Assembly (NCBI RefSeq): GCF_010093815.1 | Contig: NW_022985558.1 | Span: 969,459 to 1,033,458, forward strand | Origin: Pseudovirgaria hyperparasitica | Lineage: Eukaryota > Ascomycota > Dothideomycetes > Acrospermales > Acrospermaceae | Length of the DNA stretch: 64,000 nt | Reading direction: 5' to 3' | Shown: piece after piece, positions 11,541 through 49,771 of the stretch | Layout of the letters: the number at the start of each line of letters is the position of its first letter | Numbering within the stretch: position 1 is the first letter of the stretch | Notes under the pieces: model-generated | Database searches by the model: none | Seen by the model: the letters and a program-made list of their open reading frames with translations, nothing else | What the model was told of the DNA's origin: nothing | Translations under genes and position numbers: made by a program

Positions 11541-11711
11541 AAATCGGGCACTTTGTTACGGCTACGGCAGTAGCAAACAACATGTATAATTAATGTAGGC
11601 AGTAGCTACGCACCGGTCGGGTGTATATATACAACCGACCGTACACGTACATAGAAAATGGCATGCTTTTATGACCAATATTACAACTTGAACTGTCAAG
11701 GAACTTAATAA

Positions 11712-11885
11712 AGAGCTTTAAGTAGTTTATTAAACTAATAAAAATAGAAATTCTAATAGCTAGAAGAGCTTTAAATAAATAATAGCTCTTAGAGATATAG
11801 AGATTCTAATAGCTAGAAGAGCTTAAAGTAATTTATTAATCTAATAGCTATAGAAGTTTTAATAGCTAGAAGAGCTTTAAATAAG
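11712..11885. repeat. Tandem array with ~53-bp AT-rich unit
   Basis: Just over three diverged units, each carrying the core TAATAGCTAGAAGAGCTT, begin near 11712, 11765 and 11819. Related sequence also occurs near 11410-11445 and near 48580-48660, so the unit belongs to a dispersed family. Confidence 0.7.
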
Positions 11886-12091
11886 TATTTATGTTAAGGG
11901 TGAACCCTGGGTATTCTTGACGTAGGCGCACCTACGCCTGCGCTATCCCTGTTCTACTAAGCGAGGCTAAGCGAGCCCCTTCTTACTAGCGCGCACTCCG
12001 CCCTTTACCTTAAGGAAGCCGAGTAGACTTCTACTCCCTCCCTTATCGAACTTACTATATCCTATAAATACTCTTACGTCTGTGTATACGT

Positions 12092-13325
12092 GCCGCCAAG
12101 TTCAATTCAGAAGAGGGACCAGACCTTGCCTTGTAAGCGCATCACACGATGGCGAGGGGCGTACCCCTCGCCATTCTAACTCTGGCACAGCTTCGCATTA
12201 CAAGCCTTGAAGGATGAACGTAATTGTTAGCCGTATCGTCGCAAGTGGGGCACTTATCTACACTTTATCATCTGCGAGGATCGCGCATTTGTATACGGTG
12301 GGCAGTCGGTCGACTTACTACATAGGATCCACGAGCACCATGCGGTACTAGGCCGTCTATAACTGAAAGGGGATACTGGCCGAGAGCCACACTATGCCAA
12401 GTGGAGTGAAGCACAGAGTAAACCTGGATTTACGCATTTCTGGGTCGTCATTGCAGTCCAGAAGCTCACAGGATACCACGAAATCGATAGACGCGCCTTG
12501 AATGTACTCGAGCATCTAACTATCCTATATGTACAAGGCTACCAACAAACATACCTTGATAAAGACTGGCCAGTTGACATGTCCCGTATCGCGCCATGCG
12601 GTCTAAACGTCAAAATCGCCTTAGGGCAGAATCTCTGGCCTACTAATTTTTCGCATATCCCGAAAGAGGCCGACAACGCAAAGTTTCAAGAATGGAAAAG
12701 AAACGCAGCTCAAGGTGGGAAGAGCACCGCAGAGAGGAAACGGCAGGCCATTGCAGAAAGGTTCGGATATCACGAACCGGTGAAGCTTGCCGTTAAGTCT
12801 GGGCACAACAAGCATACGAAAGTAATGAACCATGCAAGCCTCCGGCTTATATTCTTTACTGCTGAGCATGAAGATCTTGCCAACGAAGAGTTCATTGATG
12901 TGTTCTTTGAGACTACAAACCAGGGTGAAGTGCACCCGAATAGCATCGCCCCAAATGCTATAGTAGGCACGGATATCGCTGCTCGTCTAGCGATAAGACT
13001 CCCGGATCGAATCCATGATGACGGCACTACGGAAGCTCGATACATCAAAGACAGTAACAGCGGCGAAGCATTTACAAAAACGTGTAATTCTCTCGCAGAT
13101 ATACTGACGGGAGAAGGTGACCCGAGTAAGTATATCGAAGAGAAGGTTCCACGTCGCAGGGTCCCGGCAAACAGACTATTACAAGTCGGGGATTCAACCT
13201 ACACTAACGATGATGGAAATCTTATACCCAAGGTGGTACAGAATAAGAAGGGCGAAGGTAGAAAGAGAGATAATCTCGTGCTCGCGAGGAAGGAGGAAAA
13301 AGAAGCATCTAAGAGTAACACATAG
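12092..13325 (+). pseudogene. GIY-YIG-like nuclease domain gene, decayed copy 1
   Basis: This is the best-preserved member of a family with four remnants in the window. Coding similarity to the copy at 23.6 kb begins around 12092 (AAKFNSEE, DLA). A likely intron at 12133-12190 (GTAAGC, CTAAC branch, CACAG) leads into FFALQALKDERN and then GTYLHFI, VYGGQS, RIHEH, which fits the GIY-YIG fold signature (GIY, YIG-type YGG, following Arg and His). After WVVIAVQKLTG and a helical VLEHLTILYVQGYQ part, the frame runs open from 12498 to 13325 with a lysine-rich tail. In-frame stops at about 12228 and 12360 lie within the nuclease region, so it is probably a pseudogene; the GIY-YIG label is inferred from motif spacing only. 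The upstream end and true start are not identified. Confidence 0.6.
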
Positions 13326-13465
13326 ATTGCAATTGAAACGGCTTCATTATGGGAAGGCGCGTATGTGTTTATCTAATGAAGATGCTTTTAAGGCTACAGA
13401 ATCTACAGTATATATGCACTAGTCTAACATTTTCGCCACCTTTCTACTTGTAACCAATTAATACC

Positions 13466-13578
13466 TTGTGTACGGGCGACTCGGCCACGACCATCAAGGC
13501 ATTGTTCGCTATTGTGACGTGCTAGATAATATGATTATCCTATAAGTTATATAAGAAATATCTATCTAGTAATATATC
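13466..13578 (+). pseudogene. RIP-mutated fragment of the 18 kb protein kinase
   Basis: About 110 bp align without gaps, apart from the first bases, to the coding strand of the kinase at 17852-18628 (its residues about 49-87). Nearly all differences are C-to-T or G-to-A transitions, creating TA dinucleotides and stop codons. This is the pattern expected from RIP of a duplicate. Homology is lost after about 13578. Confidence 0.75.
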
Positions 13579-13814
13579 TATTAAGTTAATTAATAGTTCG
13601 AAGAAGAGTTGGTCATGAAGCATATTATTTACTATCTAGTCTACGGTTAGTTATCTTATATTAACCGACCGCCTAGTAGCTATCATCTATATTATATATA
13701 CAGAGTCCTTGTAGTAATCTCAATCTAGGTCACGACCTTCGCGAGCAAATAACAGAGCCCCTTCCTTGCAAGCAACTTCGATCCTGAGTATAGGAATGTT
13801 GCCGCTCGGTATAT
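13579..13814. other. AT-rich intergenic DNA
   Basis: Follows the kinase fragment. It may be a further RIP-degraded sequence, but no coding similarity could be recognised. Confidence 0.4.
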
Positions 13815-15725
13815 TTGGATGTGAACTTCTTCAAAGAGCAAAACCAAGGTCTTCCAAAGGCTGAGAATGAAGGTCCAGCGACCAGTACGCACCTATTCGA
13901 GGTGTTGGACCAGCCTAAGTATGGCTCCGAACTCTTTGTCACCTTACGGTATCAGTACGTCTGGGTGGACGGTGATTGGGAATTTGAGACCCGTCACCAC
14001 GTTCTCCAGCATTCAATTGAGCCGTGACAATATCATTACTGGAGATGATGGAATTAGCATAGGATACAAAATCGTTGACAATGACAGTTGCGAACAATAC
14101 ACACACATTTATTCCCATCTATACTGGAACTGGTCAGAGCCGAGCAGGCCCATGCGGAAGAAGTGAGGGAAGATACTATATTCAACTACCAAGCGCCTTC
14201 AATACATCTTCTTCAAATCGCCTACAACGGCCACTTTTGCGGATACAATGTCATGGTTGATCAGGATTTGAGTCCTGAACATGCACAGCTGAAGGCTCTT
14301 CTCAGCGGGCCATGCAAGCTTTACATCCTTAATCTCGGGTTCGAGTTGGACAAAGAACTCCAGAAGATCGATATGGAGCTTGGCCAACGCTTCAACCCCC
14401 TTGATGCTTGGTACCCCAATGGAGAAACGCTTGAGGCTGTAGCAATGCAGCATACGATTCCCGAAAACAAATGGCCCAAGTATGTACGGGGCCTATAGCC
14501 CATCGTGGAACAACAGATTTGCCAACAATACATTTTTATGGGTTTCGGCTTTGCAGGAGGCTCAGCTGGAAAAACATCAAATCTGAATACGCCGCGGTCC
14601 AGCTCTCGATCATCAAACTCTCGGGAGACAGCCACACTTCCTACCTGGGTATCTTGTACCCGTCCAAAACCAATCTCCGATACCTACCCAGTGAACATCT
14701 CCGTCTGAAGATGAATCCGGACGAGGTATATCCCGAGAATGATTGGGTATGTGAGGTTTTGGCAATTCCACCAACATTTGTTCCAGTCGCGGCTGTTGCT
14801 ATTAAACTTATCCGTCCCCCGAATGAACCCGATATAGATGACTTGGCGCTGCATGAACTACTCACTATAGATCTGGACCAAGCGCCAAAGACGGTTGACG
14901 ATGTTTTTGCAACTGTCGAGCGCTCTATCCAGTCTAATGCATCGTTGCAAAAAGCGTCAATCGAGACCAGAGTAGACGTTAGCGATGGTGTCGGCCAGCA
15001 ACGCATGCAAAACGGTCCAGAAGTTCACGTTGCGACTTTCACGTTCGAAGGAAATGTTTTTTTCACGCTAGATCCTGATATCGAGCGTCTTATCCTGGGA
15101 AAGGATTCGCATAACCTCCGCCCATGAGACGTCTACGACACGCTGACGGAAGATAAGCGCCTTCTCGACGAAATGCTTATCAAGGTTCATGGTAAACTAA
15201 GCAAAGAGCAAGCAGACGTTCTAACGCAAAGTCTAAAGGTGCCAGCAGGCCATGTCGTCATCCAGGACTATGTTGGTGCAGGAAAGACATTCCTGTTTCA
15301 GATGCTCATGGCTGCCACTCTTGAGATTTCCCGAAAGGTACGGCGCAGCAGTCCCAGCCCATCCACCGAAGCAACGAGTCCCAAACAGAGCATGGGAAGC
15401 AAAAGCAACACCGTATGGTGAGGCGCGAACATCAGCACCTCTACGTTGCACCTACCAATGCCTTGGTGGACGACGCCATCAAGTCGACTTACGAGTTCAT
15501 CGGTTTCCTATCCAGGGGGCACAGAATCAAGCGAGAACCCTGTGTTATCCGCCTGCTCAACCCTAATTACAGATTGCCTTCTTCTTTTACTAACGATCTC
15601 TATAATACCAAATGGTATTCCTACTTCACTAAGAGTGTGCTCCGCTTTCCAATTCCATCTCTGGTGGAAGCGAAAATGGAACGCGATGAATGCCATAACT
15701 ACAGTCCTCAAGCTGCGCCAGCTCC
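13815..15725 (+). pseudogene. SF1 helicase-like gene, N-terminal half (broken)
   Basis: A series of plus-strand frames with protein-like composition spans this region: residues such as FNYQAPSIHLLQIAYNGHF (14.19 kb), then YAAVQLSIIKLSGDSHTSYLG and DIERLILGKD (14.6-15.1 kb), then KEQADVLTQSLKVPAGHVVI leading to a Walker A-like GAGKTFLFQML (15.28 kb) and YVAPTNALVDDAI (motif Ia-like, 15.45 kb). This order suits a UPF1/DNA2-type superfamily-1 helicase. Frame changes and stops (for example a stop at 15125) show it is broken. The sequence ends abruptly against the phosphotransferase gene on the other strand. A matching C-terminal half lies inverted at 20.16-21.64 kb. Family assignment is inferred from motifs. 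Confidence 0.6.
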
Positions 15726-16459
15726 TTAGGATTATTATAAATACGCGGTAGAAGTAGCCGGGAGAACGATTTGAACTTTACTTGGTGCTTCACAGCAGCA
15801 GCCTCGAATATTGGAGGATAAAATCCAGTACAACCCCAATCGATTAGCCAAACCTGGTTGCGCGTGTCCAAAATAAGATTTCGAGGGCTAAGATCTCCAT
15901 GAACGAGGACGAAGTAGGGACACTGTAGTGGTAGAGTATCCGGTAAGGCCTGCTTAAAATATTTACTTAGGCAGAGTTTCCATTTAATCCACTTCTGGAA
16001 TATTTCTCTCGTCGGAAACGGTCCTGCGCCATAGTCACTAAACACTATGCCACAAGATGCTCCTCCACCAATAACGCCTGGATGGTCATTATGTATGGAT
16101 TGAAGCTGGTTAATCATAGCCGCAACCTGGTCAACCACACTGTCCTGAAGACCGGAATTGAGTTCGTCCCAACATGTATCCAGGGAGACACCGTCTATGT
16201 AGTCCATGACTATGTAGCCTTCGACTCCAGAATCAGAATATGACGAAGGTTGATTAATATCAAAGTAACGGTAAACACGAGGTAGTCTCACGTCCGGAAA
16301 CTTCGTCGTGACATATCTCATCGTCTCGCCTTCTGAGGCTAGAACAGTGGGCCCAAACTTCATCACCAGCGTTTTAGACAGTCGTACAACTTTCAAACCC
16401 CCAAGTGAGTGAAGGACTGGAGCATCTTGGCCATATGCCATGAGTTCCTCCTTTGGCAT
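15629..16459 (-). CDS. Aminoglycoside-phosphotransferase-like kinase 1
   Basis: A 276-aa member of the APH/choline-kinase-like fold, common and expanded in filamentous fungi; substrates are unknown. The catalytic Brenner-type motif VHGDLSPRN lies near residues 187-195 and the metal-binding LIDWGCTGFYPP near 205. An N-lobe lysine is in KTLVMKFG and a glycine-rich ALGxL-like stretch (HSLGGLKVV) precedes it. The first ATG on the minus strand is at 16459. The last 20 or so codons overlap, antisense, the end of the helicase fragment, so the native C-terminus was probably replaced at a rearrangement junction near 15.7 kb. The core looks intact, so it could still be expressed. Confidence 0.75.
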   Translation of the reverse strand: MPKEELMAYGQDAPVLHSLGGLKVVRLSKTLVMKFGPTVLASEGETMRYVTTKFPDVRLPRVYRYFDINQPSSYSDSGVEGYIVMDYIDGVSLDTCWDELNSGLQDSVVDQVAAMINQLQSIHNDHPGVIGGGASCGIVFSDYGAGPFPTREIFQKWIKWKLCLSKYFKQALPDTLPLQCPYFVLVHGDLSPRNLILDTRNQVWLIDWGCTGFYPPIFEAAAVKHQVKFKSFSRLLLPRIYNNPKELAQLEDCSYGIHRVPFSLPPEMELESGAHS

Positions 16460-17851
16460 CAAAGCAATATCAAAAGTTGCGCCATCTAGCGGGCATAGAG
16501 TCGAACGACTTCGAGCGGCCGGCTATGTTCTTTAGCGTTTTTTTTTTATCTCAAGCGGTGATCGGGTACTCACATCGACATAGGGAACCCAGGGATCTGG
16601 CATTATGCTCGGGCGAGGACTGGACATTGCTCACAGGTATAGAAGTGATAGGAAACTATGACATGGACCGAATTAAATGGAGGCGTTACTACCCACGAGG
16701 CAGCTGGCTAGCGAAGCCTTCGGCCCTTCGCCAGGACTTGACAAGGCTGTACACCGAAGTATTAGCGAGCGGCAAAACCGCACAGACCTTGAATCGCCTT
16801 CTCGACTACCAGTGCCATGCACTGCGAAGTAGATCTTACGGTATTTCAAATATCTGAGATTGCCTAGACGTTACCTCTGCATTTCCTCTGAGGGAATATG
16901 AGGCACAGAGATTGCCTGTGCGACGAACCCTCCCCACTTCGATTGGTAGATACCCAATTAGGTATCTTATACCAGAGTTCCTATAAATTATATATAGCTA
17001 TCCTATTAGAATAGATAGTAAGTAGGTACTTCTAATAAATATAATAGAACAAAAGAATCCTTCGGAAGTACTTAGAAGTACTTAGAAGTGCTATATCTTT
17101 TTTAATGTATATTGTCAGGCACGTGGCCTGCTAGTTGATTCTACATGTGTGCAGCAGTCGTATATAAGCAGTGTGCTCCACCCTTGAAGCAGTAGCTTCA
17201 AGATTCGGTCCTTTTGGTGTAGTTGGTTGGTGCGTGGAGCCCGCCTTCTTACATATATTATTTATTAGAAGTAGATATATCTATTACAGTTTCTATATAT
17301 TTATAGTTAGAGTCTATCTATATCTAGCTTAGGCGGTAGTATTATATTCTATAGCTTATATATTTAGTAGTAAGGGTAAGATTAAGCATAGACCTATCTT
17401 TATTCTATTTATACTTTCTCTAAGTAATTTACTCTATATATATAAGAAGATATAGAAAGTTATAGTACTATATATATAGTTCCCTTACTTAGAGTTCTTC
17501 TTTTATAATAGTTAGACCTCTCTACTATCTATAGTAGAGGTTAAAGTTACTAAGGAGAATATATTATTCTAGTATTATAGTACTCTTAAGTATATTATCT
17601 AGTATTATAGTACTCTTAAGTATATTATCTAGTATAAGTAATTACTATTAGTTATAGATATTATAGATATAAAGAGAATCTATACGTAAGCAGAGATGAA
17701 GCGATCTTGTAGCCTTACTAACATGATTCATCGTAGTAGCGATGACCGCTTCGCCCAACCTATGAATGGTAGTATAGACGTTAGAGTCAGAATCAGGGGA
17801 ACCAGGAGCGATTTGCGTTTGAAAAGGACGATGTGGCGGAAAATGGAGAGC
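16460..17851. other. Intergenic region, AT-rich from ~16.95 kb
   Basis: A + strand frame at 16453-16857 has no ATG start and no recognisable motif. From about 16950 to 17690 the DNA is very AT-rich with many TATAG/CTATA motifs, as expected of RIP-degraded repeats. No gene is seen. Confidence 0.5.
17571..17636. repeat. 30-bp direct tandem repeat
   Basis: Two identical 30-bp units (17571-17600 and 17601-17630) plus the start of a third, inside AT-rich DNA. Confidence 0.9.
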
Positions 17852-18628
17852 TTATCCGTAGCTACTACAAGGCATTAGTGATAGATGCGGAATCAACGAT
17901 TCTAAAAATATACCTTCTAGCTTTATGTCTTGGAGCGCTTCACTGATAGTCTCATAATCCTGACTCCAACATTTCAGGATCGTATTACGAAGGGCGGGAA
18001 TAACTGTCACATCCGGGAAGCGGCTTGCCTCGAAATAGGCACTTATTTGGTCGTCACTCACACTCGCATAAGGCTTCGATCCGGTCATCAACTCATACAC
18101 CGTAGAGCCAAGGGCGAACAGCTCAGTCTTCGCGGAGATGTCTGTCCCAGGAAGTTCATGACTAGTCTCATAACAGACAAGCGGTGGGCACCCATCAATC
18201 GACGAACCAGCAAAGTCGCCTAGCTTGACGTTCAGATTATGGTCGAGGAATACGTTATTACACGAGATGTCGCCATGGAGCACTCCTCTTGAGTGGACAT
18301 ATTGCACAGCATCGAAGATCTGCTCCGCCCATCGAAGCTTCAAGTGAAGCGGAATCCGCGTCTGTCGTCCGATATATTGCCGGATGGATGTTTCTCGTGC
18401 AAATTGTAGGACAATCGCATTGTCCAGCACGCCAAAATAGCGAACGATGCCTTGATGGTCGTGGCCGAGTCGCTCGTAGACAAGCTTCTCCCGGTCTAAA
18501 AAATGCGAATCCCAGGGTTGGCAGAACTTTATGACGGCATCGAGACGTGCAACGATCGCTGTTGTTCCGGCGCCAACTAAGTCTCCGCCACCGAGACCCC
18601 TTGGCCATTGTATATCACACTGTTGCAT
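17852..18628 (-). CDS. Small serine/threonine protein kinase
   Basis: A single-exon 258-aa protein kinase catalytic domain without extra domains. Visible motifs are the glycine loop LVGAGTTAIV (17-26), the VAIK-type lysine in AVIKF (K34), the catalytic loop HGDISCNN (118-125, His-Gly-Asp in place of His-Arg-Asp) and GDFAGSS (137-143, DFA in place of DFG). A C-lobe with ELFALGSTVYELMTG is present. It resembles the lineage-expanded small fungal kinases with HGD catalytic loops. Targets are unknown. The metal-binding aspartate is present, so activity is possible despite the DFA change. A RIP-mutated partial copy at 13.5 kb shows the gene was duplicated. Confidence 0.85.
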   Translation of the reverse strand: MQQCDIQWPRGLGGGDLVGAGTTAIVARLDAVIKFCQPWDSHFLDREKLVYERLGHDHQGIVRYFGVLDNAIVLQFARETSIRQYIGRQTRIPLHLKLRWAEQIFDAVQYVHSRGVLHGDISCNNVFLDHNLNVKLGDFAGSSIDGCPPLVCYETSHELPGTDISAKTELFALGSTVYELMTGSKPYASVSDDQISAYFEASRFPDVTVIPALRNTILKCWSQDYETISEALQDIKLEGIFLESLIPHLSLMPCSSYG

Positions 18629-18941
18629 TTTCTTCCAACAAGGGTTTCACGTAAGATGGATAGGTGAAGGAGGATGGTATCGGTAAATTGTGACAGTGTG
18701 CTTGTGGGAGGGAGAGGGGTCGCAAGGAGCGGGAAGTACCCTAGAACCCAACAATCTTGGCGTTTCCCATTTTACGCGTGTATCCTTACCTTTATACAAG
18801 AGACTACATATTAGATTACTTATATGGACTTGTAGAGGATAATAAGATATACTAGATCCTAAATACTTTTTAAGCTATAAAATCTCTCATTTAGTCTTCT
18901 TATATCGACCAAGTTCACGGACGCAAGGCAATCACCAAGAC
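18629..18941. other. Intergenic DNA upstream of the kinase
   Basis: Probable promoter of the kinase on its proximal side; the 18780-18900 part is AT-rich. No gene is seen. Confidence 0.5.
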
Positions 18942-19440
18942 TTAAAGGACTTGAGAAGCCGTTTCTCTTTCAATCACCAAACTGTTTATCAGTCTGCGAT
19001 CCTGCGTACCTTTCTTATGCTGACAACATCTTGGTACTGCAAGAACTTTCTTCCCCGCATAATCCCGTGGGTTCACAGGAAACAGGAGCACTTCGTTCGC
19101 GTACGTCTCTCCATCAGCAAATGGACCTTCATCTTCCTCAAGCTCGACAATGTTTATTACGAGTACTTCTGGGTCGAGATCGCCGGCAGGAACAAGATGG
19201 TCAAACGTCACCCCATAGTAATCGATATACCTGAGCGCCACCGTAGATCAGCCTCAAGCTCCTGAACAAGGTGCTTCCACCCACTCTAGCGGTTTTACCC
19301 AAGCTAGGTACTCGTCTCGTACTATCGCAATATCGTCGGTTGCTCCATACAGAGTCTGGTGTGTAAGGTTTGCTAGCGCTAAACCCCCTTGCTGTGGGAA
19401 AGGCGTAATTTTTTCCCACGAAGAGCCCGGTAGCAGCTTT
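18942..19440 (-). pseudogene. Unrecognised broken gene
   Basis: Minus-strand frames successively read YGATDDIAIVRDEYLAWVKP (about 19.35 kb), a short shifted piece (HLVQELEADLRW), then ALRYIDYYGVTFDHLVPAGD to about 18942. The composition looks protein-like and segments in neighbouring frames abut, so I read this as one decayed gene with at least two frameshifts. I do not recognise the family. Confidence 0.4.
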
Positions 19441-20160
19441 TGTATGGATACAAGGACCTTGGATCCGGATTCTCAAAGGCTTTGCAGCGGGGGGCGGATG
19501 TAACGGGTGTTGAGGATGGTTGACGCAAGGATGGATATAGAGCTGAAGTGACATTATGTAGTTTAACTCGACAGTCAGGCTATACCCGTACCACGCACTT
19601 TAGTAATTGAACAGATCCAAATATACTTAGGAAGGGCGTTTCTATATTTACTTTTAGTACTATTTACTACTTCTATTACTATTATCTCTAATCACTAACC
19701 TTTTCTTCTATTTTTTAACTTATTAGCTTCTAGTTTAATAGACTTAGTATAAGAGGCCGGGCACTACGTACTAACTTGCTTATAAAGGACTGAACCACAG
19801 GTGAGCCACGTGCCGAGCACGTGACTTCTTACAAATAGTTAGTCAGTTAGTCTAGGAGTAATCTACTTTCTATCTATTATATTAATTATTTTCTTAGCGA
19901 GTTTCTTATAAGGCTAGAAACTATAGTTATAAGTAGAGAAGGGGAGGGAGAGTTACTATGCTAAAAAGGGGGTGTTCTTATAGAGGGGGAGGAGAGTTGG
20001 ATTTAGGGGGGCGGAATTCCAGGGAGGCGGATTTCTTATCTATGATCTGTTTCCTCTATTTCATCTATTTATATATGCTTCTGTACCATGTTACTTATCT
20101 ATGCTACATAGGTCCTATACAACAGCCAAGCAAAGCAAAACTAAGAGGCATTCAAATGGA
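19441..20160. other. AT-rich intergenic DNA
   Basis: Contains AT-rich degraded sequence and a perfect inverted repeat CACGTG-5 bp-CACGTG at 19807-19823. No coding signal. Confidence 0.5.
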
Positions 20161-21640
20161 TCAAAGCTCCGCCAGCCCAGCGATCTGCTGCATATCAAAC
20201 TCCACCACAGCCCCCGCGCACTTCCGCCCATAGTTTAGCACAGAGAGCGAATGACGGCCGCGAAAAGCCCCACTGCGCAATAAATGCGACATATTCCCGA
20301 CAACAACGAGGCCGTACTGCGTGCGCGTCGGCGCAACGATGATCCGGCTGTGCTCCTTCATGAAGCCTGGCCGGTCGAATGCGACGATGGTGGTGGCCTG
20401 GAGGCGCGGGTCTAGACGCTGGAATGTCTTGCTGGCGAGGGCTTTGTGTGCAGCGTAGGGGCTGATATGCAGGATGTCGGCGGCGCTGATGCCGGTGCTA
20501 AAGCCGGCCGTGGTACTGCGGAGGAGGGCTTTGGCAATGGAGAGCTCGATGCGGAGGGAGTCGGTGTTGAGCAGGCTTTTGCTAACGAGTGTCGCGGGGG
20601 ATGTGGCGGCGTTGATGAAGACGACGTTGTGCGGGCTCGGCAGGTTGAATACGTGCTGAAGGAGGGCGACGTAGCATGGGCCGTTGGGGTCCTTGGGAGG
20701 GTCACGCCGGCCAGATGCTTTCATGAGGCCGCCGTAGCAGGCTTTACTGATGGGTTTCACAATGGCTTCGCAGGAGCGTTCGGAGGTAAGGAGTTGAGAG
20801 TATGCGAAACCGCAGTCCATGAGGCGGGCCATCATCGAGTGGGCTGCGTTTTCGGCGAAGTTTGCGTTGTCGCGCGTTTGCTTGGTTGAGACGCCTGTCT
20901 GGTGCTTGTCGCCGACCATGTAGACAAAGGGCTGCCACTGCGGCGTGAACTAGTTCGCATAGATGCCCATCTGGTCTACTTCGGAGAGCTTGTACCCTTC
21001 ATCGAGGAATATCATGACGGGGAAGATTGTTTCGGCAACTTTTGGCGTGTTCATGACGTACGGTGTGCCGGCGAGGAACTGGGCGCGGCTCTTGATTTCC
21101 ATGTATAGGAGGGCGCATCTGTGGTTAAACTCTGCCCAGGAGGCAGGTGTGGCGGTACCAGCTAGGATTTGATTGCGCAAGGCGCAAAGTCTTTCGTGCC
21201 TGGTACCGAATTCAGGAGCCTGCCATTCGAATCGGGGTGGTCCATTTGGACAAAGTCCAAGGCTTCAAGAGCGATAAAGTCAATGGTATGCTTGATCATC
21301 TTGGCCCGGCATTCCATTGTCTTTAAGCCCAAGGGCCCGCTCTGGCTGTCTTGGAACGCCTTCTCGACCAGATGCCCGCCTTCGCCGAGCAGATAGCGGT
21401 ACGCCATATCACCGCTAAGTGCAGCCATTGCGAATGAAGCCATTATTGCCGACCTAGATGCCTTTTGTGCCTCCAGTCTTTTCTCGAATTTCTGAAATAG
21501 CTAATCTATGGCGATAGAATTCCTTGTCCTTCAGCGCCTTGTCCAAACGCCGCTCGAGATCTACTATAGTTAACTGAGCAGCCTCCACTTCTCTGGAGAC
21601 AGCATTCAAATTTAATGCAAGTTCCACCTCTCTGCTCGTG
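20161..21640 (-). pseudogene. SF1 helicase-like gene, C-terminal half (broken)
   Basis: Minus-strand frames give, in order, a heptad-like coiled-coil segment (QLTIVDLERRLDKALKDKEF, about 21.58 kb), GDMAYRYLLGEGGHLVEKAF, a Walker B-like VMIFLDEGYKLSEVDQMGIY (about 21.0 kb), MVGDKHQTG (motif III, 20.91 kb), and near the end RIIVAPTRTQYGLVVVGN (motif VI-like, 20.3 kb). This is the usual order of the C-terminal helicase half of UPF1/DNA2-type SF1 proteins. An in-frame stop at about 20950 and frame changes break it. It lies inverted relative to the N-terminal half at 13.8-15.7 kb; the two halves together would cover the expected motif set. Confidence 0.65.
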
Positions 21641-21656: not shown

Positions 21657-22421
21657 TTACGGTCGCTGCCATCGAGTAATAGCTTGATGGCATACCAGTT
21701 CAAGGCTGTAAGACTGAGGAAAGATTTGTCTTGCCCGATTCTTCCAGTCTACATGTTTCGAAGGTCTGTCGAAAAGTTTGATATATTCCCAGTGCTCAGG
21801 ATACCAACCGGCATATTCCCAATCAAGCAAGCCTGTAATCTTCCCATTCTTTACTAAAATATTATGCTGTGAGAGGTCGCAATGTGAAAAAACGATGCGA
21901 TGATCAGTGCGAAGTTGTTGGTGTAATGCTTCGAGCACGGGACTCGGGGTCGTCTGAACAAGGTCACAGTAGAATAGGTTAAAGCTTGCTTCGTCCAAAA
22001 AAGGTCCTCCGCTATAATCAGAGTATTGACGTAAATCTCGTGCGGATCCGTCTGAGCAGGATCCAATACGTCTATTAGTCGATGGAGCAGATCGCATTGT
22101 CTCAAGGATTTCTCGTAACTGATTACAAATATGATCTTTCTCGCATTCTGTCATACTCGGCCATACAAGGTCAAGTCTATCGCCATGAATGTACTCCATC
22201 CATAAGCTAGTTTCTCCTTCCCCAGAATCTTTCTGTGCATTATATACCTGGGGAACAGGTAGGTTAATGTGTGCTGCAAATTCGAGAGCATACTTTTCAT
22301 CTAATTTAAGTCGTCTGCCCTTCTTTAAAACGACAGATCCAGAATAAAGCGTAACGGTCCGATCTTGTATCGCGTGGAGTATCGAACTCTCTAGAATTGG
22401 ATTAGATCTGCCACATTCCAT
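21657..22421 (-). CDS. Aminoglycoside-phosphotransferase-like kinase 2
   Basis: A 254-aa APH-fold phosphotransferase. FSHCDLSQHNILV (about 176-188) supplies the catalytic Asp and metal-binding Asn, and GLLDWEYAGWYPEHWEY (about 198-214) the second metal-binding Asp. WMEYIHGDRLDLVWPSM is the hinge region and SVVLKKG carries the N-lobe lysine. The ATG is at 22421. It is only distantly like kinase 1 of this island. Its 3' end lies within about 20 bp of the broken edge of the helicase C-terminal half, the same arrangement as kinase 1 at the other half. Substrate unknown; apparently intact. Confidence 0.8.
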   Translation of the reverse strand: MECGRSNPILESSILHAIQDRTVTLYSGSVVLKKGRRLKLDEKYALEFAAHINLPVPQVYNAQKDSGEGETSLWMEYIHGDRLDLVWPSMTECEKDHICNQLREILETMRSAPSTNRRIGSCSDGSARDLRQYSDYSGGPFLDEASFNLFYCDLVQTTPSPVLEALHQQLRTDHRIVFSHCDLSQHNILVKNGKITGLLDWEYAGWYPEHWEYIKLFDRPSKHVDWKNRARQIFPQSYSLELVCHQAITRWQRP

Positions 22422-22734
22422 AACATTCCTATGACGGACTCACTTTGTCCGCCCACAGCATCATGTCCTTCATCCTGTGCTAGCGCTAGCATATCTTCAA
22501 CTCAAATTTCCAAGTTTGCGCCGAAATGCCAAATGAATTGGTCAAGGTTCTCAAGTCAGGGTCTCTCAACTGACTACATTGCAATTGGGTGGATACATAC
22601 GAGGGGAGCTTGATTCGCGGATGACGTGAGACGATTACGTTATCAGCGCCGCTACACTATTTCAGGCAAAACCACCTCTCTGCAACGTGACCTCTGCAAG
22701 TGCAGCCCGGTCAAAATACAAGTCAAATTTTACC
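22422..22734. other. Short intergenic region
   Basis: No gene or repeat recognised between the phosphotransferase start and the GIY-YIG-family fragment. Confidence 0.5.
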
Positions 22735-22968
22735 ACTTCGTTATTTGAGACTGCAGGCCAGGGTGAAGTGCACCCAAATAGCATCGCCCCGAATGCAATA
22801 GTAGGCACGGATATTACTACTCATTTAGCTATAAGAATCCCGGATCGAATTAATGATGACGGCACTAATACTATGGAGGCTCGATATATTAAGGATAGTA
22901 ACCGCGGCGAAGCTTTTACGAAAACATATAATTCCCTCGCGGACGTACTAATGAGAGAAGGTACTTAG
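22735..22968 (+). pseudogene. GIY-YIG-family gene, C-terminal fragment (copy 2)
   Basis: About 230 bp match copy 1 at 12.90-13.12 kb: both translate to FET-x3-GEVHPNSIAPNAIVGTD and RYIKDSN-x-GEAFTKT. Differences are largely C/T and G/A transitions, as expected after RIP. Similarity stops at a stop codon near 22966. No N-terminal part is present on this strand. Confidence 0.8.
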
Positions 22969-23195: not shown

Positions 23196-24185
23196 TTACC
23201 TGAGAGGTTGGTATATAAATAGACATCGTACGCTTTCTGCGGTCTTCTTCCCACCATGAGCTGCGTTCTTCTTCCCACCATGAGCTGCGTTCTTCTTCCC
23301 ACCATGAGCTGCGTTCTTCTTCCCACCGTGAGCTGCGTTCTTCTTCCCACCGTGAGCTGCGTTCTTCTTCCCACCGTGAGCTGCGTTCTTCTTCCCACCG
23401 TGAGCTGCGTTCTTCTTCCATTCTTGAAACTTGGGGTCGTCGGGCTCTTTTGGCATGTGCGGGAAATTGGTGGGCCAGATTCTCTGGCCCAAGGCGATTT
23501 TGACGTTCAGCCCGCAGGGTGCGATTTCAAAGCTTGTGATGCGAAGCTGTGCCAGAGTTAGAATGGCGAGGGGTAACACACCATCGTGTGATGCGCTTAC
23601 AAGGCAAGGTCTGGTCACTCTTCTGAATTGAACTTAGCGGCAATATCCTCTCTGAAATGCTGTATGATCACATTAGGGTCACATTGACCAGGCAAAATTG
23701 ACCCGTATCGCTATTGAGCAGGTTGAATTTTGTCATGGCGCTTTTGCATGCGAGTAAGCATGTACGTATTGACGTCAACTAGCTTAGGTAGCGCTTTGTC
23801 TGGCCAAGGCGGGGTACCCAGTGGAATGTGTGGGTTCATGCTTTGATAATCGAGAAGGTTGGGATTTGGCTTCACGATACCGTCGATTGATACATCAGCT
23901 CTTAACTCTTCGAATGTGTCTTCGTCATCATCGGCATGAATTGCCAGAAGCTCTGACGTGGTATTTCCGGTTAGGTATTGGTTAACGGTTAGAGAGCTGT
24001 TCGTAATCCGATGTTGGTTGATAGTAGAAGACTGGTCGATAGCAAAACCCGAATTCACATCAGGAGAGCAGGCAGTTGCGGAAAAAGTGGCTGAGTGGAG
24101 AGTAGAGGATATATTCGCCGTAGATGTAGCAAAGCTAGACTTGTCTGATTTCTTGAGCCCTGACCTCGTTCGTCATGGTCATCCC
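23196..24185 (-). pseudogene. GIY-YIG-family gene, N-terminal fragment (copy 3)
   Basis: The minus strand reads a Ser/Thr-rich N-terminal region (SSTINQHRITNSSLTVNQYL), then PNLLDYQSMNPHIPLGTPPW and DPNVIIQHFREDIAAKFNSEE, the latter continuing the sequence found upstream of copy 1. After the same putative intron (about 23.53-23.59 kb) the nuclease core seen in copy 1 is missing, and sequence jumps to IAPCGLNVKIALGQ and KEPDDPKFQEWK, then into a 24-bp minisatellite. Two stops lie near 23.6-23.7 kb. The fragment shows that the family has a disordered N-terminal extension. It is inverted relative to copy 2. Confidence 0.65.
23244..23419. repeat. 24-bp coding minisatellite
   Basis: Seven tandem 24-bp units encode KKNAAHGG on the minus strand, expanded from a single such unit in copy 1 (KRNAAQGG, about 12.70 kb). 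The first three units (by + coordinate) carry CCACCATGAG and the last four CCACCGTGAG, a synonymous His codon change. As 24 is a multiple of three, every frame stays open through the array. Confidence 0.95.
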
Positions 24186-24297
24186 CAGAGTTAGGGATTA
24201 CCCGTCTTTATTCGAAGAAGTGTGAATGATGTATTTGAAGGCATTCAAATGTATTGTAAAGTGTGTAGAGAACTAAGTCTGTGAGACTCAGTCGAAG

Positions 24298-25500
24298 CTA
24301 TTTAACCGTGGGGACACTAGTCCCCTTTAGGAAGTCGTGTCCCTCACTGTTAAGGGTGAACCCTGGGTATACTATTGGGTCAATGACCCGGAAGTATCCT
24401 CCCGGCGGCAACATGTTCCACCCCTCTCCCTCCCCATACCACAATGTGTGTGGCCAGGCCCCGTCCGCGCCTCCCTCCTCTCCCATCCTTGCGACGTCGA
24501 AGGCCTTGAGCGCTATCGACCACACCTTTGTATAGTCCAAGCAACCAGTCGCCCACTCCTCCACCCTAGATATCTTTCCCTGGTCCTCCATCCCCTCCAC
24601 CATCGATCTCATCGACGGGAATCTCAACGGCTGATGTGCCCAATGGCACCAAACCATGTTCGAGTCTTGTGAGAAAAACGCGAACAGGCCAGCTCCATTG
24701 GTGAAAACACCATCGGCGAACAGGAAGGTACCGGCGCCGCTGAGTGCGCGAATCGGCGGAACAATCAGTGGTACTGTTGTGTATGTGACGTGCGTCATGT
24801 TGCAGTGCTCTAGGAGCGCAGCACGGAGCTCGGTGTAGGTATGAATGGGATCTGGAGCGGTGTAGACTCGGATTGAAGTTTCCCATTCCATCCAGTGTCT
24901 GAGCTCAAGGATATTGTCGGATTCCTCGTCCGTCTCCTCCGACTCAGGGGTGGTAGCCTCCGGAATGGGTAAGGGGCCAGGAACGAAAGGTGCAAACTCA
25001 GCTGTGGTGGGCGTTACCGGACGGTTTTCATTTATAGTGAGAGTTGAGAAGCTAAGCCGGGGTGCCGTGGGAGTATCTGGGGTGTCTGTAGCTTCTTCGG
25101 GCTGCGAGACCGGCTGATCTGAGCTCGTGTCTGAGGGCTCTACTCTCTGGTTTTGGGGTGGATGCTGGGCCCAGATTGTTCTTGCTTCTGCATGTGATAT
25201 CGCTTGAACTTGTGGGATAGAGTCGAAGTGTGCGCCTGAGGCTTGAAGAAGAACGAAGAGACGTTGAGCCACCTGTTCAACCTGCATTGCATGCACAAGC
25301 CCTGTGGCCCGCAGAAGTGATGCTTGTTGGGTGGCCATATGCCACCGGGTCTGACGCAAATCAACAGCGTCCACTGCTACACGGGGAAAGGGAGGCGGAA
25401 ATGATCGAACAGGGGCTCCAGATCTTGAATATCTTGAGGACAAGCCGGTTAAAGGTACTGCTTGATTGGGAAACTGTCTGAAAGGAAGTTGGCGATCCAT
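24298..25500 (-). CDS. Hypothetical 400-residue protein
   Basis: An uninterrupted 400-codon ORF with an ATG start, in an otherwise decayed neighbourhood. The first ~130 residues include an Arg/Gln-rich N-terminus, the next ~80 are Ser/Thr/Pro/Glu-rich and likely disordered, and the C-terminal ~190 residues look globular and rich in aromatic residues (ELRHWMEWETSIRVY, FLFADGVFTNGAGLFAFF, YPGFTLN near the end). No transmembrane segment or known motif is seen. A 22-bp part of its 3' end also occurs at 11893-11914. The length and codon-like composition support a real gene; function unknown. Confidence 0.6.
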   Translation of the reverse strand: MDRQLPFRQFPNQAVPLTGLSSRYSRSGAPVRSFPPPFPRVAVDAVDLRQTRWHMATQQASLLRATGLVHAMQVEQVAQRLFVLLQASGAHFDSIPQVQAISHAEARTIWAQHPPQNQRVEPSDTSSDQPVSQPEEATDTPDTPTAPRLSFSTLTINENRPVTPTTAEFAPFVPGPLPIPEATTPESEETDEESDNILELRHWMEWETSIRVYTAPDPIHTYTELRAALLEHCNMTHVTYTTVPLIVPPIRALSGAGTFLFADGVFTNGAGLFAFFSQDSNMVWCHWAHQPLRFPSMRSMVEGMEDQGKISRVEEWATGCLDYTKVWSIALKAFDVARMGEEGGADGAWPHTLWYGEGEGWNMLPPGGYFRVIDPIVYPGFTLNSEGHDFLKGTSVPTVK

Positions 25501-47850: not shown

Positions 47851-48796
47851 AGAGAGGGACACAACTTTATTGATGTTATAATTAGCGAACATTGCTGTAA
47901 AGTTGAACTGGCAAGCCTTTAAGCTATCCTTTCGGCTAAAAGGAACCTTTCTTAGCGTCTTTTGACAGAACTGCCATTGCAGACTTCTCTTTCCTCAATA
48001 TACCAATCTCACGATACGAAATATGCCGACTGATTTCGTCGACATTGATGTTCTACTTAGCCCTGACAAGTGTTCTCCGGGCGTGTGGCCACGCTCACAC
48101 TGATTAGTGCTCACATATTGATTATAGTCGATCTCGCCATATGTTTCTTCGTGCCAGTGCCCAACACCTGCGAAGGATGAAGACGCAGCGACTATCAACG
48201 AGAAAGCAAATTCAAACATAACCTCTCCCCTAATCATTGCAACCTGTCCACATGTCATATCCTCTCCCAGATAAAAAAACCTCTCTCCATAGTAACGCAC
48301 TACAACAAACAGCATAGCGAGCTAGCACACTTCAAGCACGGTACATCATCTCTCATAGAAATACAGCTCTGGAACGGCTATACTCTTTAGTCTATAACAC
48401 TTGATTGACACACACGCGTCTTAGTTGAATTTCCCCGTTTTCAAGACCCTATCAGTTTCTGTAGATAGATGTGCGTGGACCTAGAGATGCTCGAGGAGGT
48501 TTCTCGGAGAGCCCGCAGGTGGTCACTATTATATCTCCTTGGGCGGAGAAGGATTTTATTAATCTTGAAAGCATAGAAAGTCGATAGCTAGAAGAGCTTC
48601 AAGCTATTTATTATACTAATACATATAAATATTATAACGACTAGACGGATTCTAGTTGATATAGTAAGTAAGTATATACTAGAAGAATGGACTCTTAGAG
48701 TGTGTTCACTTCGCTGACTTGAGGTGCAAGTGGCTACGTGACTATTATGCACGTGCATAGTTCAAATCAGCCGCGAAAAAAAATGGAAAAGGAAAT
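47851..48796. other. Intergenic region with AT-rich repeat remnant
   Basis: No gene. At 48560-48690 the DNA becomes AT-rich and includes the GATAGCTAGAAGAGCTT core shared with the tandem array at 11.7-11.9 kb. A run of A at 48775-48784 and an AAAA at 48787-48790 lie 3' of the tRNA on its strand, where they read as Pol III T-tract terminators. Confidence 0.6.
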
Positions 48797-48877
48797 GCCA
48801 AACAGCGGAATTGAACCGCTGATCTTATCATCTCGTGGTAGTACAAGTGATACGCGTTACCACTGCGCCAGTCTGGC
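48797..48877 (-). tRNA. tRNA-Thr (UGU), intron-containing
   Basis: An 81-nt cloverleaf on the minus strand: acceptor GCCAGAC pairs with GTTTGGC (one G-U), D arm GCG/CGC, anticodon stem TATCA/TGATA, variable loop AGATC, and T arm AGCGG/CCGCT with loop TTCAATT. Box A (TGGCGCAGTGG) and box B (GGTTCAATTCC) are intact. The anticodon at 48845-48843 reads TGT. The 17-nt span between the anticodon stems implies an intron of about 10 nt just 3' of the anticodon (about 48832-48841). T-runs downstream on this strand fit Pol III termination. Confidence 0.88.
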
Positions 48878-49454
48878 TTTAATTGACAAGATTTGAATTA
48901 GATTAAATATACAGTTATGTCAAGCTTGTGATATAAGATTGGAAGAAGACTGCAGAAAGAGTCCTAGCTGGGTATGGTGACTATGGTGACGTAGCGGCCT
49001 AGACTACCTAATTGGGACTAGCAGCTGGCCTAGCCGACCCCACTTCTCCTAGTCTCTATTTTATTCCTACGGGTTCTCATAAAAAGATACTAGTCCCCGC
49101 TAGCGTCCTCACCAAAACCACGACTAAAAAACCACCTTTTCCCTCATAATAAATTAACCACGCCCTTAATCAAAAATCTGTTCCGATAAATCGTGCTCCT
49201 AGCTACGCCGAGTAATTCTATATACTTTTTATAACTTGTAGGCGCGGCGTCGCAGACGAGTTCCAGTTACAAGCCTCTGGTGTCGCGTTTAGTAGCAGCT
49301 TGAAAATTCGCACGTCTTAGCCGTGGATTTTCCGGCGTGCCTTAGTGCCTTAGTGCCTTAAATTAAGACTGCACGCAGTCTGCCGGCCGCAGGCCACCCT
49401 AGTCTTTCATATATACTTCTACATCCGATCGATGAGCTCACAACTCTAATTATC
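48878..49454. other. Intergenic region, tRNA to GIY-YIG remnant
   Basis: Mixed AT-rich and GC-rich segments; a TGCCTTAG-type short repeat lies near 49340-49360. No gene seen. Confidence 0.5.
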
Positions 49455-49771
49455 TAATCTGCAAGAACCATGAAACCGGCACTGCTTGACGTCAAAGTGG
49501 AGCATACAACAAGCACAGGAAAACAATGCATTACGCGAGCCTCCGGCTTGTATTCTCTGCTATTAAGCACGATCATCTCACGAGTGAAGAATTCATCGAC
49601 GTGCTATTTGAAACAGCAGACAAGGGTGGTGATTCAACATACACCGACGACGCGGGCAACTTGATTCTAAAGGTCGCCCAGGAGTCAGAGGATGAGGGGA
49701 GAAAGCGGGATAACGATGTACTTGCAATGAACTTTGCGCGAGAACGCTGCACTCGCGAAAGAAGGAGGTGA
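49455..49771 (+). pseudogene. GIY-YIG-family gene, C-terminal fragment (copy 4)
   Basis: Matches copy 1 from its HEPVKLAVKSGHNKHTK region onward (here HETGTA, stop, RQSGAYNKHRK), through MHYASLRLVF and EEFIDVLFETADKGG, then directly into DSTYTDDAGNLILKV and GRKRDND. The 87-codon stretch that starts GEVHPN in copies 1 and 2 is absent, and the frame is kept across the gap. At least one stop lies near 49490. No nuclease core or N-terminus is nearby. Confidence 0.8.

What the first reader, a model, noticed from the sequence alone, without database searches (positions are those of the whole stretch)
12092..13325. A dispersed, decaying gene family with a GIY-YIG-like nuclease core
Seen: four remnants (12.1-13.3, 22.7, 23.2-24.2, 49.5 kb) share one protein; copy 1 has GTYLHFI, VYGGQS and RIHEH in GIY-YIG spacing, followed by a helical part and a long conserved C-terminal region with no known domain. 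Known: GIY-YIG domains occur in homing endonucleases, repair nucleases and some selfish elements. Inference: an uncharacterised multicopy nuclear nuclease family, perhaps mobile, targeted by RIP. The unusual part is the C-terminal module (ASLRL, FIDVLFET, NAIVGTD) joined to the nuclease.
Basis: partly seen in the sequence, partly recalled or inferred. Interest (0 to 1): 0.72.

Follow-up and report, generated by a model that had tools for sequence, protein, structure and literature searches.

The report
Broken remnants of fungal nuclease-like gene
One fungal contig carries four broken, locally scattered pieces of a single protein-coding gene whose fullest copy begins like a GIY-YIG DNA-cutting enzyme, but no complete copy was found in this genome assembly and nothing shows that it is a mobile element.

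Summary
The family is real: four pieces of one protein lie at 12.1-13.3, 22.73-22.96, 23.38-23.64 and 49.50-49.73 kb. They diverged as coding DNA: 64 of 112 differences are in third codon positions, p = 3e-7. The fullest copy is open for 320 codons; 0 of 2000 simulated sequences matched that.

Only copy 1 holds the proposed nuclease core, and a TAA cuts it. GIY-YIG is the only Pfam hit: E = 0.0057 for the 43 open residues, 0.052 and 0.073 for read-through versions, all below the curated cut-off. None of 10 scrambled controls gave GIY-YIG. A small phage-based GIY-YIG profile did not pick it up, and structure prediction was uninformative. So GIY-YIG is probable, not proven.

All 5 own-genome matches lie within 37.5 kb of one contig. 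The multicopy, RIP-marked sequences are the short flanking repeats, not the gene. Copy 3 looks like a patchwork. The C-terminal module matches nothing held here, but fungal proteomes could not be searched. Best reading: an ordinary relict of a fast-evolving nuclear gene family.

The parts
12231..12359 (+). Copy 1, first half of the GIY-YIG-like core: 43 open residues with GTY, VYGGQS and R/H motif
   Evidence: Only Pfam hit PF01541, E 0.0057, 17.4 bits against a cut-off of 22.6, residues 5-38 on profile 1-32
12360..12362 (+). In-frame TAA that breaks copy 1 inside the core
12363..13325 (+). Copy 1, open frame of 320 codons: second half of the core and the C-terminal module; in-frame ATG codons only at 12579 and 12825
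   Evidence: 0 of 2000 first-order Markov sequences have an open run of 320 codons (longest 203)
12588..13325 (+). C-terminal module of copy 1, the only part for which the other three copies hold matches
   Evidence: no Pfam family at E <= 10
12091..12211 (+). Upstream block shared with copy 3, 110 of 117 aligned bases identical, one 4-base gap
22729..22962 (+). Copy 2: fragment of the C-terminal module (about residues 177-252 of the 12363 frame), two insertions of 3 bases
23381..23525 (-). Copy 3, coding block (from residue 76 of the 12363 frame), 120 of 144 aligned bases identical
23526..23642 (-). Copy 3, upstream block joined directly to the coding block; the core is missing between them
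23237..23419 (-). Array of 7.6 copies of a 24-bp unit at the end of copy 3
49502..49627 (+). Copy 4, block 1 (residues 147-188 of the 12363 frame)
49628..49726 (+). Copy 4, block 2 (residues 276-308 of the 12363 frame), joined directly to block 1
11891..12091 (+). Flanking short repeat that ends exactly where the copy 1 / copy 3 homology starts; 27 other places in the genome
   Evidence: RIP indices 2.67 and 0.40
17256..17697 (+). Short multicopy repeat between copies 1 and 2
   Evidence: RIP indices of 17112-17700 are 1.57 and 0.48
24206..24348 (+). Flanking short repeat above copy 3; 27 other places in the genome
49056..49424 (+). Flanking short repeat above copy 4; 38 further match rows in the genome (some are pieces of one place)

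Best explanation
These are decayed paralogues of one nuclear protein-coding gene of a filamentous fungus. The ancestral protein most likely began with a GIY-YIG-type nuclease core and continued into a C-terminal module of at least 245 residues, probably the part that bound DNA or a partner and so chose where the core cut. SHOWN: four related coding fragments; divergence under coding constraint; a stop inside the only core; no complete copy among the places that the search of this assembly reported; short repeats with RIP-like composition beside the copies. INFERRED: the GIY-YIG identity (about 0.75), cleavage or nicking of DNA by that core, the role of the C-terminal module, and the history: local duplication in a repeat-rich stretch, divergence while still functional, then truncation, internal loss and patchwork rearrangement. 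Nothing indicates that the gene moved itself.
For: Family: tblastn E 4e-32 to 3e-9. Coding history: 64 of 112 differences in codon position 3, p = 3e-7; open run of 320 codons against at most 203 in 2000 simulations. Core: PF01541 is the only Pfam hit, E 0.0057 for the open 43 residues, 0.052 and 0.073 for read-through versions; 0 of 10 scrambled or reversed controls gave it. Residues in the read-through protein P0001: Y3, Y16 and, ten residues on, R26, the same Tyr-to-Arg step as in the T4 sequence L010; E88 follows in a predicted helix. Local, not genome-wide: 5 of 5 matches in the window, core in copy 1 only. Repeats beside it.
Against: Every GIY-YIG score is under the curated cut-off of 22.6 bits. 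The family search of the own genome with PF01541 reported one match, on another contig, and not copy 1. A profile of seven T4 GIY-YIG segments plus the one own-genome match did not report the core at all in a search where the best of 20,000 shuffles had E 0.24, and hhalign gave 0.2% probability. AlphaFold2 models are unusable, mean pLDDT 31 and 37, and Foldseek of the second gave 0 matches at E <= 0.001 and no GIY-YIG enzyme in the 50 rows shown. NCBIfam and PHROGs give nothing. Only one copy carries the core, so its conservation cannot be tested. That the copies are all non-functional is inferred; introns, a downstream start at 12579, or expression were not tested.
Confidence: 0.68

Rival explanations
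1. A selfish nuclear element: the GIY-YIG protein cuts target sites and is copied into them, and the four pieces are decayed insertions.
For: Several copies in both orientations within 37.5 kb; repeats next to copies 1, 3 and 4; GIY-YIG cores are known in homing enzymes and Penelope elements (abstract and section 6, PMC1564403).
Against: No copy outside this window; the ends of copies 1 to 4 fall at different points of the protein, so there is no common element boundary; no reverse transcriptase or transposase among 30 of the 147 listed ORFs scanned with Pfam; no NUMOD match.
Confidence: 0.12
2. The N-terminal region is not GIY-YIG; the likeness is a short chance resemblance and the gene encodes an unrelated fungal protein.
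For: Sub-threshold scores, no support from the small phage-based profile, unusable models.
Against: GIY-YIG is the only family reported out of 24,736, it lands on the motif, and 0 of 10 scrambled controls gave it.
Confidence: 0.22
3. A mitochondrial homing endonuclease copied into the nucleus, as reported for Ustilago maydis (PMC7593156, abstract and section 3.2).
For: The precedent: a nuclear GIY-YIG homing endonuclease pseudogene with a broken active site and a downstream start codon.
Against: No NUMOD or helix-turn-helix match in the C-terminal part; GC 0.478 in copy 1; four paralogues diverged under coding constraint in the nuclear contig. Codon usage against the mitochondrion was not tested.
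Confidence: 0.04

Closest known systems
GIY-YIG nuclease superfamily (PF01541), as classified in PMC1564403
   Same: Only Pfam hit; GTY ... YGG ... R ten residues after the second Tyr; a later Glu.
   Different: Score below the curated cut-off; no Asn after the Glu, though that paper says the Asn motif can be absent or changed; 12 rather than 10 residues between the two Tyr when compared with T4 L010.
Nuclear GIY-YIG homing-endonuclease relic UMAG_11064 of Ustilago maydis (PMC7593156, abstract and section 3.2 read)
   Same: A broken GIY-YIG gene in a fungal nuclear genome, with the active-site part lost from the remaining frame and a possible start codon downstream.
   Different: That one is a single recent insertion of mitochondrial origin; this is a set of diverged paralogues with a C-terminal part that matches no homing-endonuclease module.
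T5orf172 family (PF10544), a GIY-YIG relative present in this fungus (relationship recalled)
   Same: Recalled as belonging to the same clan; 3 matches in the own genome.
   Different: None of the three lies in the window, and the protein here has no PF10544 match.
Penelope-like elements with GIY-YIG domain
   Same: Known eukaryotic nuclear mobile elements with a GIY-YIG core (PMC1564403; passage in PMC4522978).
   Different: No reverse transcriptase found among the ORFs scanned.

Membership tests
GIY-YIG nuclease superfamily | Profile match at or above the curated score | tested here: not met
   17.4, 14.3 and 13.8 bits against 22.6; only family reported, so a near miss
GIY-YIG nuclease superfamily | Paired GIY / YIG strands followed by a conserved Arg | tested here: met
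   By inspection of P0001: G1-T2-Y3, Y16-G17-G18, R26; compared with T4 L010
GIY-YIG nuclease superfamily | Catalytic Glu in a later helix | tested here: inconclusive
   E88 in a helix of a model with pLDDT 37; no aligned homologue to confirm it
GIY-YIG nuclease superfamily | GIY-YIG fold | tested here: inconclusive
   pLDDT 31 and 37; Foldseek gives no significant match
GIY-YIG nuclease superfamily | Profile-profile match to known members | tested here: not met
   hhalign against 7 T4 and 1 own-genome segments: 0.2% probability, 17 columns on the YIG-Arg stretch; the profile is narrow and dominated by one T4 type
Mitochondrial-type GIY-YIG homing endonuclease | NUMOD or helix-turn-helix modules in the C-terminal part (PMC1564403, Table 1 as seen) | tested here: not met
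   No Pfam family for 12588-13322 at E <= 10
Penelope-like element | Reverse transcriptase domain in front of the GIY-YIG core | tested here: not met
   None among 30 of 147 ORFs scanned; in copy 1 the sequence directly upstream is a short repeat
Mobile element in general | Copies spread over the genome with common ends | tested here: not met
   5 of 5 matches in one 37.5-kb stretch; copy ends differ
RIP-mutated repeat | High TpA/ApT and low (CpA+TpG)/(ApC+GpT) in the copies (cut-offs 0.89 and 1.03 recalled) | tested here: inconclusive
   1 of 4 copies flagged (copy 2), copy 1 borderline (0.93, 1.06), copies 3 and 4 clearly not; the stretches are short. Context test p = 0.037

The most novel reading that the evidence does not exclude
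An undescribed lineage of nuclear GIY-YIG nucleases in filamentous fungi, in which the core is joined to a new C-terminal targeting module of about 245 residues, that multiplies locally and is then broken by the genome's own defences, perhaps as a locally spreading selfish gene.
Probability: 0.2. Interest if true: 0.5.

Novelty: new member of a known kind. Interest (0 to 1): 0.22.

Why it matters
As it stands it is a modest annotation result: a relict gene family, and a caution that multicopy flanks and short repeats can make a local gene relic look like a mobile element. If intact relatives in other fungi show a real GIY-YIG core with this C-terminal module, it would add a nuclear nuclease family outside DNA repair (Slx1) and mitochondrial introns, and give a ready test of whether such proteins defend the genome or spread themselves.

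Tried and rejected
Relatives elsewhere: viral contigs (13 pattern matches, none confirmed) and genome contigs (15 pattern matches, none confirmed). No fungal collection was on hand and no metagenome scan was allowed.

Genome-wide mobile family: rejected, 5 of 5 matches are the window's own pieces.

Copy 3 as a simple deletion of the core, or copy 1 as a simple insertion of it: disfavoured. The upstream block differs at 7 of 117 bases and the adjoining coding block at 24 of 144 (Fisher p = 0.011), 16 of those 24 in third positions, so the two blocks seem to have parted from copy 1 at different times. This is moderate evidence only.

The ORF above copy 3 as a lost N-terminal part: its one weak genome match (C4, E 0.03) is antisense to a long ORF, so taken as chance.

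An intron that would remove the TAA: considered by eye on the sequence and not found convincing; no splice predictor was run.

Structure: two single-sequence AlphaFold2 jobs (and 63/74), both unusable; one Foldseek job, uninformative.

T4-based GIY-YIG profile: one search failed on a file path, read five of the seven loci on the wrong strand and is void, one search is the valid run and is negative for the core.

Known RNA families in 10-26 kb: none.

Literature: nine searches listed no paper, among the titles and abstract starts shown, on a nuclear multicopy GIY-YIG family with such a C-terminal module. Read: PMC7593156 abstract and section 3.2; PMC1564403 abstract and part 1 of section 6; single passages of PMC9410150 (a reference only), PMC4522978, PMC4511438 and PMC4226871.

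Full report
Where it is. The window is contig C10, 969459-1033458, of an unnamed 35.0 Mb assembly in 59 contigs. Gene content looks like a filamentous fungus (SNF2 helicase, arrestin-like, pectate lyase, GH12, DUF3431, Est1); the taxon was not determined. I scanned 30 of the 147 listed ORFs of 100 or more codons with Pfam.

The family. The frame of copy 1 runs from 12231 to 13325 with one TAA at 12360; 12363-13322 is open for 320 codons. In 2000 first-order Markov sequences of the same composition the longest open run in any of three frames was 203 codons, median 80. tblastn of the 320 residues over the window finds copies 2, 3 and 4 with E from 4e-32 to 3e-9; the next match has E 0.63. DNA alignments: copy 2, 184 of 217 aligned bases identical with two 3-base insertions; copy 3 coding block, 120 of 144; copy 4, 90 of 123 and 62 of 84. 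Summed over these four blocks 64 of 112 differences lie in the third codon position (19 of 33, 16 of 24, 15 of 33, 14 of 22), p = 3e-7 against one third. The copies therefore diverged for a time as coding sequence.

The pieces are incomplete in different ways. Copy 2 is one fragment. Copy 4 joins residues 147-188 directly to 276-308. Copy 3 joins an upstream block (counterpart of 12091-12211) directly to residue 76 onward, without the core, and ends in a 24-bp tandem array. In copy 3 the upstream block differs from copy 1 at 7 of 117 bases and the coding block at 24 of 144 (p = 0.011), which suggests a patchwork of pieces of different age; this is moderate evidence.

Is it GIY-YIG? For: PF01541 is the only Pfam family reported, with E 0.0057 and 17.4 bits for the 43 residues before the stop, 0.052 and 14.3 bits for the protein with X at the stop, 0.073 and 13.8 bits for a 134-residue read-through. 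The match covers GTY ... VYGGQS ... R. Nine shuffles and one reversal of the 43 residues gave no GIY-YIG hit; one of the ten gave another family at E 0.26. Y16 to R26 is ten residues, the same as in T4 locus L010. Against: all scores are below the cut-off of 22.6; the PF01541 search of the own genome reported only one match, on C15, and not copy 1; a profile of seven T4 segments and the C15 segment did not report the core, and hhalign gave 0.2%; NCBIfam, PHROGs and PDB sequence searches gave nothing; both AlphaFold2 models are unusable, and Foldseek of the second had 0 of 472 matches at E <= 0.001 and no GIY-YIG enzyme in the 50 rows shown. I put GIY-YIG at about 0.75.

The C-terminal module. 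Residues after 12588 (245 residues) have no Pfam family at E <= 10. A profile of the four copies finds three PDB sequences at E 0.48 to 0.98, which I take as chance. Since no fungal protein collection was on hand, this does not show that the module is new.

Is it mobile or RIPped? In the whole assembly the protein has 5 matches, all of them the window's own pieces within 37.5 kb, and the core has one. The tool says such counts are lower bounds. By contrast the flanks are multicopy: 11891-12091 has 27 other places, and 5 further rows hit 11600-11713 (34 rows with self and copy 3); 17256-17697 has tens of places (62 rows, many split or hitting other parts); 24206-24348 has 27; 49056-49424 has 38 further rows. 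The first of these ends at 12091, exactly where the homology of copies 1 and 3 begins. RIP indices flag 7 of 7 tested repeat or AT-rich stretches, 0 of 3 ordinary genes, and 1 of 4 copies (copy 2); copy 1 is borderline at 0.93 and 1.06. C/T differences between copies are somewhat commoner before A (19 of 85 sites) than elsewhere (39 of 309), p = 0.037; in copy 2 the T is mostly in copy 2 (6 of 7), in copy 3 it is in copy 1 (5 of 5), in copy 4 it is mixed. Mild RIP of copies 1 and 2 is possible; strong RIP of the family is not seen.

How it most likely worked. By analogy with the superfamily (PMC1564403; abstract and part of section 6 seen), the core would have cut or nicked DNA, and the C-terminal module would have provided binding or partner choice. 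That is inference. The present copies are probably inactive: the only core is interrupted, and the other copies lack it. A truncated product from 12579 (248 residues, without the core) is possible and untested.

Comparison. A nuclear GIY-YIG relic is known in Ustilago maydis (PMC7593156, abstract and section 3.2), but of mitochondrial origin and single. Homing-endonuclease, Penelope and T5orf172 membership are each not supported by the tests listed. The result is ordinary: a relict nuclear gene family with a probable nuclease core.

Noticed in passing
12149-12174: Perfect palindrome, 11-bp arms around CGTA, in the upstream block of copy 1; copy 3 has mismatches and a 4-base gap there, as if a template switch made or destroyed the hairpin.
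   Followed up: partly
13465-13578 and 18371-18484: Inverted pair of 114 bp, 82% alike; in the genome search of 13320-18500 the two match only each other.
   Followed up: partly
15632-16522, 17855-18646, 20164-20949 and 21660-22439: ORFs with APH-type kinase, protein kinase, AAA_12 and APH-type kinase matches in the same repeat-rich stretch; the first has a 73% DNA relative on contig C13.
   Followed up: no
17001-18000 and 19251-20000: AT-rich stretches with strong RIP-like indices.
   Followed up: no
11711-11884: 53-bp tandem array, GC 0.23 in 11714-11890, with a 66% relative at 48592-48662.
   Followed up: no
48796-48877: A tRNA-like gene on the minus strand with an unreadable four-base anticodon call (ARAGORN with bacterial code), next to the repeat that flanks copy 4.
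   Followed up: no
own genome C12:1239553, C26:262745, C1:2122250: Three T5orf172 (PF10544) matches over the cut-off elsewhere in this genome.
   Followed up: no
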